Source: Rubrobacter indicoceani (lineage in GTDB: Bacteria; Actinomycetota; Rubrobacteria; Rubrobacterales; Rubrobacteraceae). From it: 64,000 nt of DNA. Of the stretch, positions 4,346 to 13,333 are shown one piece after another. Under the pieces are notes generated by a model that saw only the letters and a program-made list of their open reading frames with translations, had not been told where the DNA came from and did no database searches. Position numbers and translations under genes: made by a program. The stretch spans positions 1,860,001-1,924,000 of the forward strand of contig NZ_CP031115.1 of the NCBI RefSeq assembly GCF_003568865.1, written 5' to 3'. The stretch's first letter is position 1. Each line of letters opens with the position of its first letter.

Positions 4346-5251
4346 TTAAGGTTTCAGAATATGGTTCGCTATCTTTACTGCAGTCGGCGCGCCCACAGGG
4401 TTGGCTGCTGCGAAGCACAGCAAGTAGAGAGGGACGTTTGTGGAGTTCTTAAGTGGCAGGGGCTTCTCTGCTACGCCGGGAAATATGGTTTTGAGACGTT
4501 TCACAAAGAAAGCACCGATGCTGTCGAAGTTCGCTTGCTTTTCGAGTACGGCTTCTTCGTTATCGAAGAGCATAAGAGCATCGGACTCTTTCTCGGGCGT
4601 TCTGTAGAATGCTTCTCTCCAGCTTTCGGTGCCGAACATTCTGGTAAGACGTTCAGCGTGGGCGGCTTCTGGCAGGCGTTTTCTGGTCAGGAGACGATTT
4701 ACGGCCTGACCGAGCGGAAAGAGGAGCCAGAGATCCACAGCTTTGGTCCGGGCGATGGCTTCTATGGTAGCCCAGTCTACTTGCATGCCATAAGGATCTA
4801 GGAACACGACAGCTCTGTTGCTTTTCCAGTTGGTGTTCCGGCACCATTTCTGTAAGAAGTCGTTGGCGTCTGCGACCTCGATCGTAATCCTGTCGGCTAG
4901 ATCGGGGAACTCATGTCTGAGTCTGTCTAGAGAAGCAGCGTGTTCGCGACTCCTATCTATGAACACATAGTTATCGAATTGGTTCTCTTGCCTGAGCGCA
5001 ACGTATGCGCTTCCCTCCTTGAGATAGTTGGTGTCGTCATCTTCAAGAGCATCTTCAAAGAGCGAGCCTTCTACGCGGTCCTCGGCTACTGCTGATGCTA
5101 TGCGTCCGGTTCCGGCGAAAGCGTCCAGATAGTAGGTTCCGAGCTTCGAGGCGGTTTCGTTGCGCGTAAAGATCGTCATGTACGCCTCGAGATACTTGTC
5201 CACACGTCTGAGCTTGTCTTCAGTCCACGGTCCTCCAAACGCGTGTTCCAT
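4346..5251 (-). CDS. tcmP: Three-Cys-motif partner protein TcmP
   Basis: 301 aa. TcmP proteins are encoded beside three-Cys-motif (Gp37/Gp68) proteins, as here: the partner ends 15 bp upstream. The fold looks like a methyltransferase-type Rossmann domain, with DAFAGTGR at 43-50 and a DPYG motif at 152-155 (VVFLDPYGMQVDW), like the DPPY of N6-adenine methyltransferases. The N-terminal GPWTEDKLRRVDKYLEAY is characteristic of the family. The biochemical role of TcmP is not established; nucleic-acid modification or phage defence is inference. The operon starts at a promoter that shares its operator with the lexA-like gene. Confidence 0.85.
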   Translation of the reverse strand: MEHAFGGPWTEDKLRRVDKYLEAYMTIFTRNETASKLGTYYLDAFAGTGRIASAVAEDRVEGSLFEDALEDDDTNYLKEGSAYVALRQENQFDNYVFIDRSREHAASLDRLRHEFPDLADRITIEVADANDFLQKWCRNTNWKSNRAVVFLDPYGMQVDWATIEAIARTKAVDLWLLFPLGQAVNRLLTRKRLPEAAHAERLTRMFGTESWREAFYRTPEKESDALMLFDNEEAVLEKQANFDSIGAFFVKRLKTIFPGVAEKPLPLKNSTNVPLYLLCFAAANPVGAPTAVKIANHILKP

Positions 5252-5266
5252 GAGTGTATAACCCTT

Positions 5267-6007
5267 TCAGCCTGTGAAGACGCTCATCCACCGTTCGGTG
5301 TGAGCGAGATATGCTCGAGGCATCTCGTCGTAGGTGCGTCCGTCGAGTTCGCGGCCTTTGGCTTTCGGGCGTATTCCGCCCCACTGTTTGAAGAAGAACG
5401 CACTGTCGGCCTCGTGTGTCTGCTCGCGTATGTCTTTTACCCATTGGGCTTCTATCGGGCGATGTCTGGGACCGGACTCGCCGCCGACGATCACCCAGTG
5501 GATGCCACCTAAGTCGAGGTCCAGAGGTCCGAGTAGCGGCTCACACGACAGGAAACGAACCGCCGCAGGCACCCGCCTCAGATAATCCACCCGGTAGGCG
5601 TAGTCCTGGTTCTCGACTGAGACGCCCATCCATACGTTCTCCGGCCAGGGGAGGTCGTCGGAGAGTTCGACGAGACGCTCGTGTCGCTTGGTGAGGATCT
5701 GGAACACATGGCTGGGACATTCTTCCATGACCTTGAAGATCTCCTGCAGAAACTCCAGCGGCATGCGCTCGTGGAAGAGATCGCTCATGGAGTTGACGAA
5801 CACCCGGCTCGGCTTGCGCCAACGTCTCGGCTCGTCCAGCCGTCCGGGATGCAGGGTGAAATCGAAGCCGTTCTCGAAGTGGTTGTGAAAACGCTTTGTA
5901 AGAGCCTCTGCATAGCAGTTTTTGCAACCGGGGCTGACCTTATTGCAGCCCGTAGTCGGGTTCCAGGTCTTATCCGTCCACTCTATCGCCGTGCTGGTAC
6001 TCGACAC
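5267..6007 (-). CDS. Phage Gp37/Gp68 family three-Cys-motif protein (DUF5131)
   Basis: 246 aa from the GTG at 6005-6007, chosen because GGGAGG lies 6 nt upstream and the family N-terminus (AIEWTDKTWNPTTGC) follows at once. The open frame extends 25 codons further upstream without an SD. The cysteines C21, C28 and C31 form CX6CX2CYA, reminiscent of a radical-SAM iron-sulphur site. LTKRHERL and VIVGGESGPRHRPI are also typical of the family. It forms an operon with tcmP. Known members come mainly from phages and mobile elements; the substrate is unknown. Confidence 0.87.
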   Translation of the reverse strand: MSSTSTAIEWTDKTWNPTTGCNKVSPGCKNCYAEALTKRFHNHFENGFDFTLHPGRLDEPRRWRKPSRVFVNSMSDLFHERMPLEFLQEIFKVMEECPSHVFQILTKRHERLVELSDDLPWPENVWMGVSVENQDYAYRVDYLRRVPAAVRFLSCEPLLGPLDLDLGGIHWVIVGGESGPRHRPIEAQWVKDIREQTHEADSAFFFKQWGGIRPKAKGRELDGRTYDEMPRAYLAHTERWMSVFTG

Positions 6008-6084
6008 CGCTTTCCTCCCAGGTTCCTCATCCCGCAGTAAACACCAAAAGCGAAAGGATTGCGCTCGCTTCCATGCCAACACAT

Positions 6085-6172: not shown

Positions 6173-6421
6173 ATGGATATGAAGTTGACGTTGCCGGATG
6201 AAGTTTTGAAGGCTCTGGGTGCTGAACCGGAGCGCGGGGTGCTTGAGGGTGTCTTGCTGCTGTTGGTGAGCGAGGGGAAGATGAGCGTGGCTCGGGCGGG
6301 GGAGATCCTGAGCCTCGGGAGTCGCCACGCGGCGATACGCTGGTACACGGGACACGGTCTTCCCTATCCGGACCTCTCCGAGGATGACCTCGCCGACGAC
6401 CTGGACTATGCCTCGTCGTAG
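6173..6421 (+). CDS. UPF0175-like antitoxin
   Basis: 82 aa. The conserved centre (LLLVSEGKMSVARAGEIL, then HAAIRWYTGHGLPYPDLSEDDL) fits the UPF0175 / HTH antitoxin family found before DUF3368 toxins: a short helix-turn-helix followed by a tail that binds the toxin. The DUF3368 gene starts 15 bp downstream. A related but damaged copy lies at 12895-13137. Autoregulation is expected for such pairs but is not shown here. Confidence 0.8.
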   Translation: MDMKLTLPDEVLKALGAEPERGVLEGVLLLLVSEGKMSVARAGEILSLGSRHAAIRWYTGHGLPYPDLSEDDLADDLDYASS

Positions 6422-6436
6422 CGGCTACGCGGTATT

Positions 6437-6952
6437 GTGCCTTCTGGCGTGAACCGCCCCGGTAGAGAAGTCGCTGTCTTCGACACGAGTCCCCTCGTCT
6501 TTCTCGATGTTCTCGGTTACGCGAGTCTGCTCGCGGAGATTCACGTCGTTTTCGTACCTCCGGCGGTGGCGGAGGAGTTGGCGGCTTCACCTGGAGAGCC
6601 GGGGAGTGGAATCCCGGAGGAAGCGTGGGTGGAGGTCAGGGAGCCGGAGGCCGGGATCCTGCGGACGGTCGAGGGTGAGATGACCGAAGGGCGAGGCGAG
6701 AAGGAAGCGATCGCACTCGCCCTGACCCTTGGCGTGCTAGTCGTTCTCGATGACAAGAGAGCGCGAAGGCATGCCCGGCGGATGGGGTTGAGGTTGACAG
6801 GCACGTTGGGTGTACTTCTCAGGCTGCACCGTTTGGGACTCGCTACCCGGAGCCTCGAAGAAGACCTCCGGTTGTTGGAGGAGGCGGATATGCGAATCAC
6901 ACCTGACCTGAAGCGGAGGATCCTCGAAGCCGGTGAAGGCAACTCTCTCTGA
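6437..6952 (+). CDS. DUF3368 PIN-like nuclease toxin
   Basis: 171 aa. DUF3368 proteins are PIN-fold ribonuclease toxins. The first acidic site is D16 in VFDTSPLVFLD; EKEAIALAL and VVLDDKRARRHARRMG supply the later conserved acidic residues, and the helix TGTLGVLLRLHRLGL is typical of the family. The GTG at 6437 begins 15 bp after the antitoxin stop, without a strong SD. It forms an operon with the antitoxin. Its 3' end abuts an excisionase-like remnant on the other strand. Confidence 0.82.
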   Translation: MPSGVNRPGREVAVFDTSPLVFLDVLGYASLLAEIHVVFVPPAVAEELAASPGEPGSGIPEEAWVEVREPEAGILRTVEGEMTEGRGEKEAIALALTLGVLVVLDDKRARRHARRMGLRLTGTLGVLLRLHRLGLATRSLEEDLRLLEEADMRITPDLKRRILEAGEGNSL

Positions 6953-6957
6953 CGGGT

Positions 6958-7053
6958 TGCATCGAGGTAGCTCTGCTTCTGTAACCACCTCTCCAGCTCA
7001 CCTCGATTTACCCGAACCGAGCGGCCTGTTTGGACGGCGGGGCCGTATCCTCC
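6958..7053 (-). pseudogene. Remnant of excisionase-like HTH gene
   Basis: The translation GRSVRVNRGELERWLQKQSY almost repeats the C-terminal half of the intact excisionase-like protein at 13142-13333 (GRSVRVNRKELERWLQQQSY). The N-terminal half is missing, and the frame runs past the usual stop into sequence antisense to the toxin gene. Together with the antitoxin upstream it forms a copy of the antitoxin/excisionase module at 12895-13333. Confidence 0.75.
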
Positions 7054-7263: not shown

Positions 7264-9237
7264 CTACGATCTGAAAAGTCGGACCAGCTTTTCGAAGGGA
7301 CCGCTCTTCCTGTCCTTCATAGATGTGCCGAGGAACTCTTCGAGGTGGTCGGCGTAGAAGACGATGACGTTGCCACGGGAGCCCGTAGCGTAGAGGTAGT
7401 CCGGCACGTCGCGTTTTATCTTGTTTATGGTGCCGTGCACGTCGTCCGAGCGCAGCACTATCTTGTCCGCGCTCCTCGTCCACGCCGCAGGATCGTGCGA
7501 CCAGAGCTGCAAGAGCTCCTCGGCGACCCGGTCGTGCTTTCCGTGTCCGTAGCCCTCCATCGTCACCGCCTCGCACCAGGGAGGGAGTTCTTCGCCACCT
7601 GAATGCTCGGAGATTATCCCCGCAAGGGTCGAGGAGGAGAGTTCAAGGAGGTCGAGCGGCTCGTGGAGGTCGTCGCGGACGGTCGGTATCACGCGCTTCA
7701 GGTACTCCCGGTAGAGCGCGGTGCCGAGGTCCCCCTTTATGGCTTTGAGCTTTCTGCGTAGCTCTCGGGCTTCTCCGGTGTGGTCCGGCAGGGAGGCCCC
7801 GGTGTAGATGACGAGGGCGCGCTTTCTGAGCTCGGAGTCGAAGGTGTCCTGCCCGGCGTTCATGGACAGGACGACGCACGGGTACTCCTTTAGCCCGACG
7901 TGGTCGTCCTTTATGAGGGCATCGGCGTGCTGGGAGAAGCGGGTCTTATCCATATCGTCGAAGACGAGCGGGTAGCGACCGTTCTGCTCCATCACCGCCG
8001 GGACGTAACTCTTCGTAAACCAGTCGTTCGGCGGGAACTTGTCCCGGTCGAACATGGAAGAGAGCAGGGTCTTGACGAGCTCGGACTTGCCGCAGTTGCT
8101 TTTGCCGTAGAGAAGTCCGTAGACAGGATAGTCCCACACGTCGTCGCCCCTGGCTATGGCGGCGTTGCGGAGGTCGCAGACGAAGGCCCCGGCGTAGAAC
8201 CAGCTCCAGAAGGTGAAGTAGCCTCGGGCGAGTTTGTCGCTCTGTCCCCTGAACACGCTGTAGCCGTCGAAGTACTGAAGCCAGAAGCGGGCGTCACGGG
8301 CTACGTCTTCTTCCGGGGGGTTGAGATCCAGGGATTTACCCGAGAGTAGAACCTCGCCGGAGTCGAGGTGGAGGCTCATGGACTCCTCGGGGTTCTCCTC
8401 GCGAGTGCGCCAGTTCTCCTTTACGTACCTGACGACCTTGTTGGCGGCGGGGCGGTCTATCTTTGCAACGCCGCCCTTTGCCTGCAGGGTCGAGGCGATA
8501 CCGCCGTAGCGTTTGGGCGGTTTGGCGGCTGCGCGCTGGACTATGGAGGTCTCTGAGGGGGCGTCCTGGATCAGGATGACCTTCGGGTTCTTCGAGTCCG
8601 TTCGGGCCGGGGAGAGGGCGGGGAGGTTCTCCGGGTCGAACTCCCCGTCTATCTGCGCCCGCTCGATGATGGAGGTGGTAGAGCGATCGCGGATGCGCCT
8701 GTAGGCTTCGGAGAAGTGATCCCAGGCCGCCGGGTCGTCGTCGAAGAGGACGTAGCTCTCGTTCTGGACGCCGGAGAAAGCGCGGTCTGAGAAGTTGGCC
8801 GATCCGGTTATGACACGGGTACCCTTCTCTCCTTCCAGAAGAAAGAGCTTCTCGTGCGAGATGATCTCCTGCACCACGTAGAGCTTTATGGCTCCAGAGT
8901 CTATCTTCTCCTTGACGTGGTCCCTGCCTTTCGTAGCTGAGATGAGGTCCCGGATGAGGAGTTCCTGGTAGTACATGTAGGAGGCCATGTCGCCGAGGAT
9001 GTCCGCCCGGCCGAAGACGACCTCCAGGGAGTCCATAGCCTCGGCGGCGCGGTTGACGATGGGCAGGCTGGAGGAGTAGGTAAGGACTTTCAGGGAGGAG
9101 TAGCCGGAGATCAGGTCCTCGAAAGAGCTTCGCTCAAAGCCCTCAAAACGTGCGCGCACGACGCCCAGCTTGCTCACATCGTCGAGCAGGGCGTCCTGAA
9201 ACAGGGGATTCGTGTTTTCCTTGCGCGGTATGGTCAT
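7264..9237 (-). CDS. Phospholipase-D-like nuclease fused to P-loop ATPase
   Basis: 657 aa, last gene of a four-gene minus-strand run. The N-terminal part is a PLD-like nuclease with one HxK motif: H128-E-K130, then GSANFSD at 145-151. Single-motif PLD nucleases such as the NgoFVII type act as dimers. A linker (about 185-310) follows, then a P-loop ATPase: Walker A GKSNCGKS (378-385), Walker B YPLVFDDMD (422-430), and a later SMNAGQDTF segment of the sensor type. The C-terminal 100 residues are unassigned. Fusions of an effector nuclease to an NTPase are typical of anti-phage systems; that role is inference, and I do not recognise this architecture as a named system. Alternatives are a conjugation or DNA-processing enzyme. 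Confidence 0.8.
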   Translation of the reverse strand: MTIPRKENTNPLFQDALLDDVSKLGVVRARFEGFERSSFEDLISGYSSLKVLTYSSSLPIVNRAAEAMDSLEVVFGRADILGDMASYMYYQELLIRDLISATKGRDHVKEKIDSGAIKLYVVQEIISHEKLFLLEGEKGTRVITGSANFSDRAFSGVQNESYVLFDDDPAAWDHFSEAYRRIRDRSTTSIIERAQIDGEFDPENLPALSPARTDSKNPKVILIQDAPSETSIVQRAAAKPPKRYGGIASTLQAKGGVAKIDRPAANKVVRYVKENWRTREENPEESMSLHLDSGEVLLSGKSLDLNPPEEDVARDARFWLQYFDGYSVFRGQSDKLARGYFTFWSWFYAGAFVCDLRNAAIARGDDVWDYPVYGLLYGKSNCGKSELVKTLLSSMFDRDKFPPNDWFTKSYVPAVMEQNGRYPLVFDDMDKTRFSQHADALIKDDHVGLKEYPCVVLSMNAGQDTFDSELRKRALVIYTGASLPDHTGEARELRRKLKAIKGDLGTALYREYLKRVIPTVRDDLHEPLDLLELSSSTLAGIISEHSGGEELPPWCEAVTMEGYGHGKHDRVAEELLQLWSHDPAAWTRSADKIVLRSDDVHGTINKIKRDVPDYLYATGSRGNVIVFYADHLEEFLGTSMKDRKSGPFEKLVRLFRS

Positions 9238-9297
9238 CTTTCGGTCGGTGCTACGGGCTCGCGTATGTTCTCGGACGGGGTAGACGGAAGATTTAGC

Positions 9298-10074
9298 TCA
9301 CCGATAGGTCTTATCCCGGCATCGTATCTGAGACGAGTACTCGATCAAAGAAAAGTGGACTGTCTTGAGTATTCGATCGGTGATCGCCGCGTAGCTGTGG
9401 ACAACAAGAAAACCCGTAAGGGCGGCCAATCCGGATCCGACAAGGAGATCTCGGTAGTCCCCGCTGCTGACCACCGATCCGGCGAGCAAATCCCTGACTA
9501 GTGATTGCAGCAGGAAGAGAAACAAAATCCAGAGAACAGCCGAGATCCACCGCGGTATCTTTAGCCATTCACCCACGCGCTGCTCTCGAACTTTCATGCT
9601 TTCGCGCAGGTCGTCCATATCTTCCTGATCGATAGCTTCGATCTCTTGAAGCTTGCGGCAAATGGCCGCGAGGTCCCGACGCTTTACTCCGGAGTCCGAA
9701 TATACGGACAGAGGCGGAAGGAAGATAAAGGACACAAAGATCAACACCATGCTCCAGTTGAACAAGGACGAATTCAGAACCTCCGCTTGAGTGAAGCCCA
9801 AAACTGCTCCCAGTACGCCGACCAGGATTAGGAGTACTAGATAGAAGAGTGCGAAGCAGACAGTCCAGATCGCGTAGCCAACGGCAACCGCAATAAACCC
9901 CTTTACCAAACACATCAAGGTGCAAGCGATCCGGTACACGAAATCCAGAATCGTCCGGTTACTCTTCTTGCGCCTGAAGAAAAAGGGTAGGACACGGTCT
10001 GCAGCGAATTGGCCGAACAGCACCAACGCCTCTGCGTGCCAAATCAGTTGCTGGGTTCTGTTAAACACACGCAT
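9298..10074 (-). CDS. Integral membrane protein of the PLD-ATPase operon
   Basis: 258 aa from the ATG at 10072-10074; the frame is open further upstream and the true start is unsure because no good SD is seen. There are four or five hydrophobic segments: two closely spaced near residues 50-95, one near 105-125, one near 180-205 and one near 215-235. Between them lies a charged cytoplasmic loop (KRRDLAAICRKLQEIEAIDQ) that may form a coiled coil. No family is recognised. It lies 60 bp upstream of the PLD-ATPase gene and 79 bp after the 233-aa gene, all in the same direction. Membrane proteins paired with effector nucleases are common in defence operons; no function is claimed. Confidence 0.65.
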   Translation of the reverse strand: MRVFNRTQQLIWHAEALVLFGQFAADRVLPFFFRRKKSNRTILDFVYRIACTLMCLVKGFIAVAVGYAIWTVCFALFYLVLLILVGVLGAVLGFTQAEVLNSSLFNWSMVLIFVSFIFLPPLSVYSDSGVKRRDLAAICRKLQEIEAIDQEDMDDLRESMKVREQRVGEWLKIPRWISAVLWILFLFLLQSLVRDLLAGSVVSSGDYRDLLVGSGLAALTGFLVVHSYAAITDRILKTVHFSLIEYSSQIRCRDKTYR

Positions 10075-10153
10075 TCGTAATCCGGTCTTTAGGCTGGGCG
10101 GGCTGACGATATACCAACCCGCCTCCACAAAATTTCGCGGAATGCTCAGCCTG

Positions 10154-10855
10154 CTAGTTGTAGCGATATGGGATGGTGACCTTCGGATCGTTGCGCCAGA
10201 GCCACCCGTAGATCGGGCGCTCCCCCATGTGCGTAGGCCCGCTTGGCTGTTCCGGTGGTGCATCCTGTCCCGGGAGCTTCGTAATGACCGGTACTCCGAT
10301 GTTCATGCCGGGCGCTGCCCACGCAGGTGGAAAGACGACCGTGACGCTCATCTGTGACAGACCGGGGGCAAGAACAAATCCTGCGAGTGGAGCGAAGAAC
10401 TCAACCTCGTAGGAGCGTGGATCTCCATTCACGGGCCTGAGTACCTGACGGGTGTGGAAGCGGAGGACCTGCGAGCCGGAGGGGATGCGTACGTCGGCCA
10501 CCCGGAACTCCTTGATGGCCGCACGAACCTCCTTCATGATCGGCTCCTGGTCGGCCGGGATCTCGCCGATAGTTTTGAGAAGCTCGACAAACTGTTCCCC
10601 CCGACCGTCGCGCTTGCGAAACTCCGTGCGCTTCCCGGTGGAGACGACACGCACCTCCGCGCTCGACTCCTCGGACGGGAAGGGGAGCACGAGCCTCACG
10701 TCCTGCTCCGTGGGATTCTCCACGACAAGGACACCGTTGACGTTCGCTACGTCGTAGGAGTCTTGCGCGAAGCCCCTGTGCGGGGCTATGGACTCGACGT
10801 CCACGCCCAGCACCTGGGAGCGAACTGGGAGATTGATTACGGGACTGAGGGCCAT
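10154..10855 (-). CDS. Hypothetical protein of the PLD-ATPase operon
   Basis: 233 aa, no signal peptide or membrane segment. The pattern of alternating hydrophobic residues suggests a mainly beta fold (for example VANVNGVLVVENPTEQDVRL), with one helix around residues 85-115 and a Pro-rich stretch near 200-210. AAAGGA lies before the ATG. It follows the 57-aa gene by 20 bp and precedes the membrane protein. No family is recognised. Confidence 0.65.
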   Translation of the reverse strand: MALSPVINLPVRSQVLGVDVESIAPHRGFAQDSYDVANVNGVLVVENPTEQDVRLVLPFPSEESSAEVRVVSTGKRTEFRKRDGRGEQFVELLKTIGEIPADQEPIMKEVRAAIKEFRVADVRIPSGSQVLRFHTRQVLRPVNGDPRSYEVEFFAPLAGFVLAPGLSQMSVTVVFPPAWAAPGMNIGVPVITKLPGQDAPPEQPSGPTHMGERPIYGWLWRNDPKVTIPYRYN

Positions 10856-10875
10856 TCCGATTTCCTTTCTTTGGA

Positions 10876-11049
10876 CTATCTACTCCTGAGCATCTTCGAA
10901 AGCGAATTCCCCGTCGCGCCTCGCAGCGTGTCGAGATGGGTGTCCCTCCTCTTCGAAGACAACTCACCATACTTGCGTTCTAGGGTTTCGAGGTGCGTGT
11001 CCGACCTCTTCGCCCGGAATCTACCGTTCTTGTTACGGCTTCTACTCAT
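10876..11049 (-). CDS. Small basic protein, first gene of the PLD-ATPase operon
   Basis: 57 aa, strongly basic, with a partial internal repeat: RSDTHLETLERKYGE followed 19 residues later by RRDTHLDTLRGATGN. The ATG at 11047-11049 is preceded by GGGGGTGAG, a usable SD. It is the first gene after the minus-strand promoter at 11093-11121, and the next gene begins 20 bp downstream. It could be a small regulator, an RNA/DNA-binding protein or an antitoxin-like partner; none of these is shown. Confidence 0.55.
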   Translation of the reverse strand: MSRSRNKNGRFRAKRSDTHLETLERKYGELSSKRRDTHLDTLRGATGNSLSKMLRSR

Positions 11050-11083
11050 GTCTCACCCCCTCTCGGGTATCATCCATATCACA

Positions 11084-11121
11084 GCTATATAGTTTATAGC
11101 AACTATTTGCTATAATCGCAA
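11084..11121. promoter_or_regulatory. Divergent promoters sharing one operator (XRE-ImmA / PLD operon)
   Basis: The perfect palindrome TATAGCAA-CTAT-TTGCTATA lies at 11095-11114, and a third half-site GCTATA at 11084-11089. On the minus strand, -35 TTGCGA (11116-11121) and -10 TATAAA (11093-11098) are 17 bp apart and drive the 57-aa / PLD-ATPase operon. On the plus strand, -10 TATAAT (11111-11116) drives the XRE-ImmA gene. The palindrome fills both promoters, so one bound repressor, most simply the XRE-ImmA protein, would shut both. Confidence 0.78.
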
Positions 11122-11140
11122 GTATCGAGGAGGTGACGAG

Positions 11141-12328
11141 ATGATCACGCAGGAGGAGTTGGGGGGTCGGCTACGCCGGGCGCGTTCGGAAGCGGGTATC
11201 ACGCAGGGGGATGCGGGGCGGGCCGCGGGGCTGGATGATACGGCTATCGCCAAGATAGAGAGAGGCAAGAGGGGTGTTGGGGCGTTGGAGATCAAGCGCC
11301 TGGCTTCCCTGTACGGCATCCCGGTGGATGATCTGCTGGAAGACCCTGTGGCGGAAGGACTCGTTCCTCTCACGGTCGCGCTCCGCTCGGTGGAGGAGGC
11401 ATCTCCTTCCAGAGTCGAGCGGATGAAGCGGCAGATGCAGCGTCTGGTTTCCGACGACAGATGGCTGCGCGAAGGCGACGATGCCAGCGTGGCCTGGGAG
11501 CCTGTAGATTTACACACGATATCCAACGAGCCGGATTACAGGAGAGGGTATCGGCTTGCGGACAAGTTCCGAGCCCGGTACGAGCTGGGCGATTCACCTG
11601 TACCGGACCTTGCGATGCTCGCGGATGAGATCGGGGTGGTGGTCGCCCGAATGCCGCTCGGAGATGTGGGGGCTCCCGACGGTTGCTCCGCCCTGGATCC
11701 CGAGACAGGGTTTGCTTACGTCCTGATCAACAGCGACAAGAGCAGGGTCAGGCGCAGGTTCACCATAGCTCACGAGCTGGGACACCTCGTTTCCGGCCAT
11801 CTGAACCCGGGGGAGGTTGTTCTCGACGAGACGCTGAACGAGAAGAATCCACAGGAGCAGGAAGCCAACGCCTTCGCGGCCGGGTTACTCATGCCCGAGA
11901 GTGGTGTATGCGGCGCGGTCAAAAGGTTGCAGGGCAAGCTGGGAGAAGAGGATCCGGTCGCCTGGATCGTCTGGCTCGCGGATTCGTTCGGCGTTAGTGA
12001 GGAAGCTGCAGCCTACCGTCTTGTGAACCTGAAGTTAGCCAAAGTAGTGGGAGGCAAGACAAGAGAAGCTGTTCGGGAGGTCGCGGAGGATCTCGAAGGT
12101 CAGCGGGAGGCCAGGGCGCGACTAGGATTGTCGCTTGCTATGCGGGACTCCGAGCGAGGTGTCACCGAGGTCGGACCGTCCATGAGGGCGCGCATATCCC
12201 GCGCTCTCGAGGTGGGTGAAATCTCGGTTGATGGAGCGGCGCGAATGCTCCATCTATCTCCGGAAGAGACTGACCGCTGGATAGTTGATTCGGGCATAAG
12301 GCTGGGCGTCGCGGAAGCACCTCTGTAG
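11141..12328 (+). CDS. XRE-family regulator with ImmA/IrrE metallopeptidase domain
   Basis: 395 aa. The N-terminal XRE helix-turn-helix spans about residues 5-62 (LRRARSEAGITQGDAGRAAG). The ImmA/IrrE-type zinc peptidase follows, with FTIAHELGHLVSGH (HELGH at 211-215) and the third ligand in NPQEQEANAFAAGLLMP (about 236-252). The C-terminal 80 residues contain a second possible HTH (MRARISRALEVGEISVDGAA). ImmA peptidases cut repressors to induce mobile elements or stress genes; a fused HTH lets one protein sense and regulate. It is divergent from the PLD-ATPase operon across a shared operator, and the PIN gene follows 14 bp downstream. Confidence 0.88.
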   Translation: MITQEELGGRLRRARSEAGITQGDAGRAAGLDDTAIAKIERGKRGVGALEIKRLASLYGIPVDDLLEDPVAEGLVPLTVALRSVEEASPSRVERMKRQMQRLVSDDRWLREGDDASVAWEPVDLHTISNEPDYRRGYRLADKFRARYELGDSPVPDLAMLADEIGVVVARMPLGDVGAPDGCSALDPETGFAYVLINSDKSRVRRRFTIAHELGHLVSGHLNPGEVVLDETLNEKNPQEQEANAFAAGLLMPESGVCGAVKRLQGKLGEEDPVAWIVWLADSFGVSEEAAAYRLVNLKLAKVVGGKTREAVREVAEDLEGQREARARLGLSLAMRDSERGVTEVGPSMRARISRALEVGEISVDGAARMLHLSPEETDRWIVDSGIRLGVAEAPL

Positions 12329-12342
12329 GCTGACCTGCTCGG

Positions 12343-12885
12343 ATGCTCGCAGGAGTAGATACGAACGTCCTTATGGACTTTCTGCTACTGGATGCAAAGT
12401 CCACGTTGGCGCGAGTTCTCGGCGGTAAAGGATGGACGACGGTGTTCGTGGACGACGAACTATTCGATCCCCGAAGCGGCCGAGGTTTGAGGGTCTCGGA
12501 TGTCTTTCCCTTTATCGAGGTGGACCCTGTGGACGCCAGGTTGCTTCCTCGTATTCGTCGGGACCAGCTCGCAATCGTTGGAGAGCGAAGGGCTGAACTG
12601 GGCAATGCGGCCGGGGAGTCCAGCCTGATCCACGTAGCGATCAAAGACAGAAGCGGCTCGATCGTACTCAGCAACGATCGGCACGCGGTCGGGCTTGGGC
12701 GGCGACGCGGCATTGCCGTAAGGGGAACTCTCTACGTATTACACAGAGCCGTAGCCAGCAATGACTTGACTCTCGAAGACGCCTGGCCCATGTACTGCAA
12801 GCTGCTGGAGGAAGACCGACGCCCACCGCGAATGACGAGAGCGCAACTGGATACGTATCTGTCTTCGGGGGTGGATCCGCGGTAG
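12343..12885 (+). CDS. PIN-domain protein partnered with XRE-ImmA
   Basis: 180 aa. The N-terminal GVDTNVLMDFLLLDA has the first PIN aspartate (D6); ESSLIHVAIKDRSGSIVLSNDRHAV carries the later conserved acidic and Asn-Asp positions. PIN domains are Mg-dependent ribonucleases. It lies 14 bp after the XRE-ImmA gene on the same strand, so the two are probably co-transcribed; pairs of an XRE-ImmA protein and a PIN-like protein behave as toxin-antitoxin-like units in other genomes. The ATG has no strong SD, consistent with coupling. Confidence 0.75.
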   Translation: MLAGVDTNVLMDFLLLDAKSTLARVLGGKGWTTVFVDDELFDPRSGRGLRVSDVFPFIEVDPVDARLLPRIRRDQLAIVGERRAELGNAAGESSLIHVAIKDRSGSIVLSNDRHAVGLGRRRGIAVRGTLYVLHRAVASNDLTLEDAWPMYCKLLEEDRRPPRMTRAQLDTYLSSGVDPR

Positions 12886-12894
12886 GTTCACCGC

Positions 12895-13137
12895 ATGGAT
12901 ACAAAGCTTCACACTACCGGAAGGGGTTTTCTGGGGAAACTGGGACCGGAGCCGGGGCGCGAGGTACTTGAGGGAGTGCTGCTGCTTCTCGTGAGTGAGG
13001 GGAGCATGAGTGTGGCTCGGGCCGGGAAGATCCTGAGTCGTCATGCGGCGATACGCCCTTACACGGGATACGGCCTTCCATATCAGAACCCCACCGACCA
13101 AGACTTCATCGATGACCTGGACCATGCTTTTTCCTGA
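12895..13137 (+). CDS. Damaged paralogue of the UPF0175 antitoxin
   Basis: 80 aa, closely related to the antitoxin at 6173-6421 (shared VLEGVLLLLVSEG and MSVARAG). Two compensating indels scramble residues 6-16: in the neighbouring frame the DNA still encodes TLPEGVF, matching TLPDEVL of the other copy. A 9-bp deletion also removes three residues before HAAIR. No toxin gene follows. The frame is open, but the N-terminal DNA-binding part is altered, so function is doubtful. It lies 9 bp after the PIN gene. Confidence 0.6.
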   Translation: MDTKLHTTGRGFLGKLGPEPGREVLEGVLLLLVSEGSMSVARAGKILSRHAAIRPYTGYGLPYQNPTDQDFIDDLDHAFS

Positions 13138-13141
13138 AGGT

Positions 13142-13333
13142 TCAACGGATCACATCTGAGTAGCTCTGCTGCTGCAGCCACCTCTCCAGTTCTTTACGAT
13201 TCACCCTCACCGAGCGACCTATTCTGACGGCGGGGATCTCACCCGTCGCCACCAGCTCGTAGGCCCGGCTGCGGGCGATGCGTAGCTCTTTTGCGACCTC
13301 CCCCGCCTTCATCCACTCGTGCCTCTCGTCCAC
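13142..13333 (-). CDS. Excisionase-like HTH protein
   Basis: 63 aa from the GTG at 13331-13333, which has GGAG 6 nt upstream; the frame is open further up but without an SD. The sequence WMKAGEVAKELRIARSRAYE, then GEIPAVRIGRSVRVNRKELERWL, is the MerR-like winged helix (HTH_17) of excisionases and of small DNA-binding proteins of mobile elements. It lies about 300 bp inside the tRNA-Val attachment site, where such a gene is expected. A truncated copy lies at 6958-7053. Confidence 0.8.
   Translation of the reverse strand: MDERHEWMKAGEVAKELRIARSRAYELVATGEIPAVRIGRSVRVNRKELERWLQQQSYSDVIR

What the first reader, a model, noticed from the sequence alone, without database searches (positions are those of the whole stretch)
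11084..11121. One operator inside two face-to-face promoters
TATAGCAA-N4-TTGCTATA fills the 17-bp spacer of the minus promoter (TTGCGA / TATAAA) and overlaps the plus TATAAT. A third half-site is at 11084. This predicts mutual shut-off of regulator and operon and release on ImmA-mediated cleavage or loss of DNA binding.
Basis: seen in the sequence. Interest (0 to 1): 0.6.

Follow-up and report, generated by a model that had tools for sequence, protein, structure and literature searches.

The report
Conserved switch for swapped immune-type operons
A 23-base DNA switch that contains a strong bacterial promoter sits beside a repressor-protease gene in this genome and two relatives and occurs only in genomes that carry that gene, although the neighbouring operons, often defence-type, differ each time; this points to a portable control module of an already known general kind.

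Summary
The palindrome is real: TTATAGCAA-CTAT-TTGCTATAA at 11094-11115, unique in its 3.08-Mb genome. Each half-site holds an extended -10 promoter element (plus TGCTATAAT, minus TGCTATAAA), so the regulator gene and the divergent operon have overlapping promoters. They are divergent, not face to face.

The strongest evidence is comparative. Searched alone at up to 3 mismatches in 396 phylum genomes, the window's 23-mer (11098-11120) hits exactly three genomes, the only three with close XRE-ImmA and PIN-like genes. Each hit heads the regulator's own transcription unit. Identity is 87-91% inside the 23 bp and 14-29% outside.

The partner operon differs each time: p57-p233-membrane protein here, a ubiquitin-like/JAB/E2-E1 operon in G024, MBL/E2-E1-JAB/membrane protein in G030. 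So the site is almost certainly the XRE-ImmA operator.

Corrections: the conserved third half-site is on the right (11117-11121), not at 11084; the outer TATA arms are promoter, not repressor contact; the minus promoter is supported by this window only. Release by ImmA cleavage is inferred from CapH/CapP, ImmR/ImmA and DdrO/IrrE. A new member of the CapHP/Rosmer kind of controller, distinctive in fusion, PIN partner and swapped operons.

The parts
11098..11120 (+). conserved operator-promoter core AGCAACTATTTGCTATAATCGCA (consensus AGCAACTAYYTGCTATWATMGCA)
   Evidence: found at up to 3 mismatches in only 3 of 396 phylum genomes, each time at the head of the XRE-ImmA transcription unit; 87-91% identity inside, 14-29% outside
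11094..11115 (.). full palindrome TTATAGCAA-CTAT-TTGCTATAA; outer TTATA/TATAA arms belong to the two -10 elements
   Evidence: 6/2000 shuffles reach 9-bp arms; outer left arm not conserved in G024 or G030
11108..11116 (+). extended -10 TGCTATAAT of the regulator promoter; expected start near 11123 (inferred)
   Evidence: only 8/8 match to TGNTATAAT in 64 kb; TGCTATWAT conserved in all three genomes
11093..11121 (-). divergent promoter: -35 TTGCGA (11121-11116), 17 bp, extended -10 TGCTATAAA (11101-11093); expected start near 11086 (inferred)
   Evidence: 9/12 hexamer score plus TG; not conserved in G024 or G030
11117..11121 (+). third half-site CGCAA, conserved as (A/C)GCA in relatives; makes a second overlapping dyad TGCTATAATCGCA centred about 9.5 bp from the first
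   Evidence: three-way alignment
11084..11089 (-).
11141..12328 (+). XRE-ImmA (HTH + M78 metallopeptidase, HELGH 211-215), 395 aa
   Evidence: Pfam M78 3e-19, HTH_31 4e-12; PADLOC RmrA 1e-27, capP 2e-23, capH 4e-10
12343..12885 (+). PIN-like protein, 180 aa, always directly downstream of this XRE-ImmA
   Evidence: motif DTNVL, GE(S/A)SL, SND conserved in 3 genomes; no Pfam, NCBIfam or PDB sequence match, so PIN is assigned by motif only
10876..11049 (-). p57, small basic protein, first gene of the divergent operon
   Evidence: ORF with GGGGGTGA ribosome site; weak relative before p233 in G113
10154..10855 (-). p233, unknown function
   Evidence: relatives in G024, G113, G058 and an Arthrobacter plasmid; in the plasmid it is divergent from an XRE + M78 pair
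9298..10074 (-). p258 hydrophobic protein, probable membrane protein; start taken as ATG 10074
   Evidence: ORF; no relative in 39 family genomes

Best explanation
The 23-bp element 11098-11120 is the operator of the adjacent XRE-ImmA protein and is fused to its promoter. Repressor dimers bind the inverted AGCAA/TTGCT half-sites, with a third GCA half-site one turn to the right, and cover the extended -10 element TGCTATAAT. This shuts off the regulator-PIN transcription unit. In this genome the left half-site is extended to TATAGCAA, which makes a second extended -10 (TGCTATAAA) on the minus strand, so the same occupancy also blocks the divergent p57-p233-p258 operon. Because the protein carries an ImmA peptidase domain, inactivation of its HTH part by proteolysis on a stress or phage signal, or sequestration, should turn both directions on together. 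Shown here: the element, its conservation, its one-to-one tie to the regulator, and the swapped partner operons. Inferred: binding, repression, transcription starts, the minus promoter's activity, and the proteolytic release.
For: The window's own 23-mer hits only three of 396 genomes, the same three that hold close XRE-ImmA and PIN-like homologues, always at the head of that unit. In G030 the regulator lies near the end of its operon, and the operator is about 4 kb away at the operon's start rather than in front of the regulator, so the element follows the promoter and not merely the gene's 5' end. Identity falls from 87-91% to background at both edges. The HTH recognition stretch DDTAxAKxERG is shared by the three, while a 36%-identical paralogue with a different helix has no such site. 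p233 relatives elsewhere are linked to XRE/ImmA genes. CapH/CapP and ImmR/ImmA give the release precedent (PMC13373217, PMC10233336).
Against: There are only three instances, one of them in a 6.6-kb metagenome contig. The minus promoter is not conserved: G024 has TGATAT at that place and G030 shows nothing convincing. No binding, start-site or expression data exist. In fused XRE-ImmA proteins of the Rosmer type the demonstrated role is antitoxin (PMC10440598, PMC12795458), and self-cleavage was not shown in the passages read. The structure model was too poor to use.
Confidence: 0.68

Rival explanations
1. Plain toxin-antitoxin autoregulation: XRE-ImmA is a Rosmer-type antitoxin for the PIN-like protein and represses only its own operon; the divergent genes are unrelated cargo and the minus TATAAA is a by-product of palindrome symmetry.
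For: RmrA profiles are the best PADLOC hits; Makarova et al. describe fused COG2856-Xre with PIN toxins; minus promoter not conserved; in G030 the operator heads the regulator operon.
Against: Partner operons in G024 and G030 are of immune type; in G030 the regulator and the E2-E1-JAB genes are codirectional behind one operator; the left arm in this window is exactly what adds a near-consensus minus -10.
Confidence: 0.22
2. Mutual shut-off is mostly RNA polymerase competition at overlapping divergent promoters, with the repressor secondary.
For: The two -10/-35 sets overlap completely; competition at bidirectional promoters is documented in E. coli (PMC12825309).
Against: Divergent starts would be about 37 bp apart, against a usual 18 (10 and 23 also common) when one -10 is shared; in G030 the element stands at the head of an operon and the half-sites are still conserved.
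Confidence: 0.05
3. The element is bound by another host factor and the link to XRE-ImmA is coincidental.
For: No direct binding data.
Against: Absent from 393 other genomes of the phylum sample and present exactly where XRE-ImmA is.
Confidence: 0.05

Closest known systems
CapH + CapP (controllers of CBASS, Bub and other immune operons)
   Same: XRE-type repressor with M78/ImmA peptidase beside immune-type operons; Bub (ubiquitination-like) operons are frequent partners of CapW or CapH+CapP (PMC13373217)
   Different: here HTH and peptidase are one protein, a PIN-like gene always follows, and one operator can serve two diverging units
RosmerTA (RmrA antitoxin) including RipAB/Spr1629
   Same: XRE-ImmA fusion paired with a varied toxin-like gene; RmrA is the top PADLOC profile
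   Different: no known RmrT toxin matched; the regulator also heads immune-type operons; 36% identity or less to the other copies found in the family
COG2856-Xre fusions with PIN toxins (Makarova et al. 2009, e.g. Rv2515c)
   Same: same domain fusion and PIN-type partner; a three-component TA was predicted in 2009
   Different: the PIN-like protein matches no Pfam family; operator now defined; swapped neighbouring operons
ImmR/ImmA of ICEBs1 and DdrO/IrrE
   Same: XRE repressor released by an ImmA/IrrE peptidase
   Different: two proteins there; they control mobile-element or DNA-repair genes
Bidirectional sigma-70 promoters of E. coli
   Same: overlapping divergent promoters built on symmetry
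   Different: two separate -10 elements about 18 bp apart, each overlapping an operator half-site, instead of one shared -10

Membership tests
CapH + CapP type immune controller | XRE HTH domain and ImmA/M78 peptidase | tested here: met
   Pfam and PADLOC hits incl. capP 2e-23 and capH 4e-10, though as one fused protein
CapH + CapP type immune controller | adjacent to immune operons | tested here: met
   G024 DUF2604/CEHH/JAB/E2-E1 and G030 MBL-type/E2-E1-JAB; in the window itself the divergent operon is of unknown function
CapH + CapP type immune controller | repressor binds the operon promoter | tested here: inconclusive
   conserved operator over the promoter, no binding data
CapH + CapP type immune controller | peptidase cleaves the repressor on ssDNA | not testable with these tools
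   HELGH site conserved only
RosmerTA | XRE-ImmA antitoxin RmrA | tested here: met
   PADLOC RmrA 9.7e-28; neutralisation not tested
RosmerTA | partner toxin RmrT | tested here: inconclusive
   PIN-like neighbour has no RmrT hit; PDC-S70 only at 0.002; RmrT toxins are diverse
COG2856-Xre/PIN three-component TA | fusion in one operon with a PIN nuclease | tested here: inconclusive
   neighbour kept in all 3 genomes with PIN-like motifs, no profile support
Bidirectional promoter | shared -10, starts usually 18 bp apart (10 or 23 also common) | tested here: not met
   two -10 elements, predicted starts about 37 bp apart

The most novel reading that the evidence does not exclude
Operator, XRE-ImmA and PIN-like gene form a portable three-part cassette that captures immune operons, represses them through an operator whose half-site doubles as an extended -10 element, and turns operon and PIN effector on together; the p57-p233-membrane protein operon is then an undescribed immune system.
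Probability: 0.25. Interest if true: 0.62.

Novelty: new member of a known kind. Interest (0 to 1): 0.42.

Why it matters
It predicts, from sequence alone, the operator of a fused XRE-ImmA regulator and shows that operator, regulator and PIN-like gene stay together while the neighbouring operon changes. That gives a short, testable target for asking how these common fusions work, and a promoter-based way to find further immune-type operons such as p57-p233.

Tried and rejected
A genome-contig scan with the regulator found nothing; with the PIN alignment it returned only the G030 contig again, as a Rubrobacter metagenome record. A viral-contig scan gave one distant hit. The third half-site at 11084 was rejected because it is not conserved. 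The idea that the PLD-ATPase gene 7264-9237 must belong to the regulated operon was dropped: its relatives in G015 and G006 stand without the other genes. Structure models of XRE-ImmA and p233 had mean pLDDT 48.5 and 52.2 and were not used. Synteny with the same-genus genome G010 was looked for and not found, so no empty site could be read.

Full report
What is there. The sequence at 11080-11121 is CACAGCTATATAGTTTATAGCAACTATTTGCTATAATCGCAA. It holds a perfect inverted repeat with 9-bp arms, TTATAGCAA-CTAT-TTGCTATAA, at 11094-11115. The 20-bp core occurs once in the 3.08-Mb genome at up to two mismatches. Shuffling the intergenic region gives arms this long in 6 of 2000 trials.

Promoters. The right half-site continues into TGCTATAAT (11108-11116), the only full extended -10 match in the 64-kb window on either strand. 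By symmetry the left half-site reads TGCTATAAA on the minus strand (11101-11093), with TTGCGA 17 bp upstream of TATAAA; its 9 of 12 score is reached at only 15 places in the window. Predicted starts are near 11123 (+) and 11086 (-), so the transcripts diverge from fully overlapping promoters. 'Face-to-face' is therefore not accurate. The routine promoter scan calls neither site, so these are consensus arguments, not proof.

Relatives. Among 39 genomes of the family, close homologues of the XRE-ImmA protein exist in G030 (75%) and G024 (64%), each followed by the same 180-aa PIN-like gene. In the phylum sample of 396 genomes there is none besides these three at E 1e-40. The G030 contig matches a Rubrobacter metagenome record of the same length, so the window probably comes from Rubrobacteraceae (inference).

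The footprint. G024 has AGCAACTACTTGCTATTATAGCA directly before its regulator gene. G030 has AGCAACTACCTGCTATAATCGCA not before its regulator but before the first gene of the operon whose last genes are XRE-ImmA and PIN. The window's own 23-mer, AGCAACTATTTGCTATAATCGCA, searched alone at up to 3 mismatches in 396 genomes, hits these three places and nothing else. The letters of that query came from the window alone; its boundaries were chosen after seeing the alignment, so the test is nearly but not wholly free of circularity. Within the 23 bp the three agree at 87-91%; on either side at 14-29%, about the level of chance. The conserved part ends at (A/C)GCA (11117-11120), a third half-site on the right; GCTATA at 11084 has no counterpart.

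Neighbouring operons. In G024 the regulator diverges from a DUF2604 ubiquitin-like protein ending in GG, a metal-binding CEHH protein, a JAB peptidase and an E2-ThiF fusion that matches BilD. In G030 it follows a 384-aa protein with weak matches to MBL-type defence profiles, an E2-E1-JAB fusion and a probable membrane protein. In the window it diverges from p57, p233 and a probable membrane protein of unknown function. p233 relatives are rare. In an Arthrobacter plasmid p233 is divergent from an XRE gene followed by an M78 peptidase ORF, the two-protein CapH/CapP layout. In G113 it lies downstream of an ImmA-like gene, SbcD-like and SMC-like genes and a p57-like peptide. In G024 a p233 relative lies far from the regulator. 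So p233 is repeatedly, but not always, linked to ImmA-type genes.

How it most likely works. XRE-ImmA binds its operator and blocks the extended -10 of its own unit and, in this genome, the divergent unit too. Release is probably through the ImmA domain. The precedents are CapP cleaving CapH on single-stranded DNA (PMC13373217), ImmA cleaving ImmR (PMC10233336) and the prediction for COG2856-Xre fusions with PIN partners (PMC2701414). Fused proteins of this type have been tested as antitoxins (PMC10440598; PMC12795458), so antitoxin action on the PIN-like protein is a serious parallel or alternative role. A controller and a PIN toxin joined in one immune locus also has a precedent in VapKSC, with a different controller (PMC13373217).

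Comparison. It works like CapH/CapP and looks like RmrA; it is not filed as a strict member of either, because cleavage and an RmrT toxin were not shown. It fails the shared -10 definition of a bidirectional promoter. Overall it is a well-supported new member of a known kind of controller, with a clean operator and swapped partners as its distinctive points.

Noticed in passing
window 6215-7042 and 12940-13235: Two diverged copies (77-81%) of a cassette with a UPF0175-like antitoxin gene and an HTH_17 (excisionase-type) gene flank the block 7264-12885; the left copy also keeps a DUF3368 PIN-type gene between them. May mark a mobile island.
   Followed up: partly
L040 4684-5256 (minus), Arthrobacter agilis plasmid NZ_CP117871.1: An M78/ImmA ORF behind the XRE gene is not in the annotation table; the record lists a hypothetical protein on the opposite strand at 4810-5079.
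   Followed up: partly
window 7264-9237: 657-aa protein with a PLD-like nuclease region and a P-loop region; relatives in six other family genomes, stand-alone where the contig allows a view; the G006 copy has an internal TAA.
   Followed up: partly
window 4346-6082: TcmP (three-Cys-motif partner) and DUF5131/radical-SAM mobile pair genes next to the island.
   Followed up: no
window 10876-11049: p57 holds two DTHL(E/D)TL repeats in a very basic small protein; function unexplained.
   Followed up: no
L009 180-1223 and 4074-5138 (G024): A SMODS nucleotidyltransferase (CBASS-type) and an integrase-like gene lie within 8 kb of the G024 regulator, which suggests a defence island.
   Followed up: no
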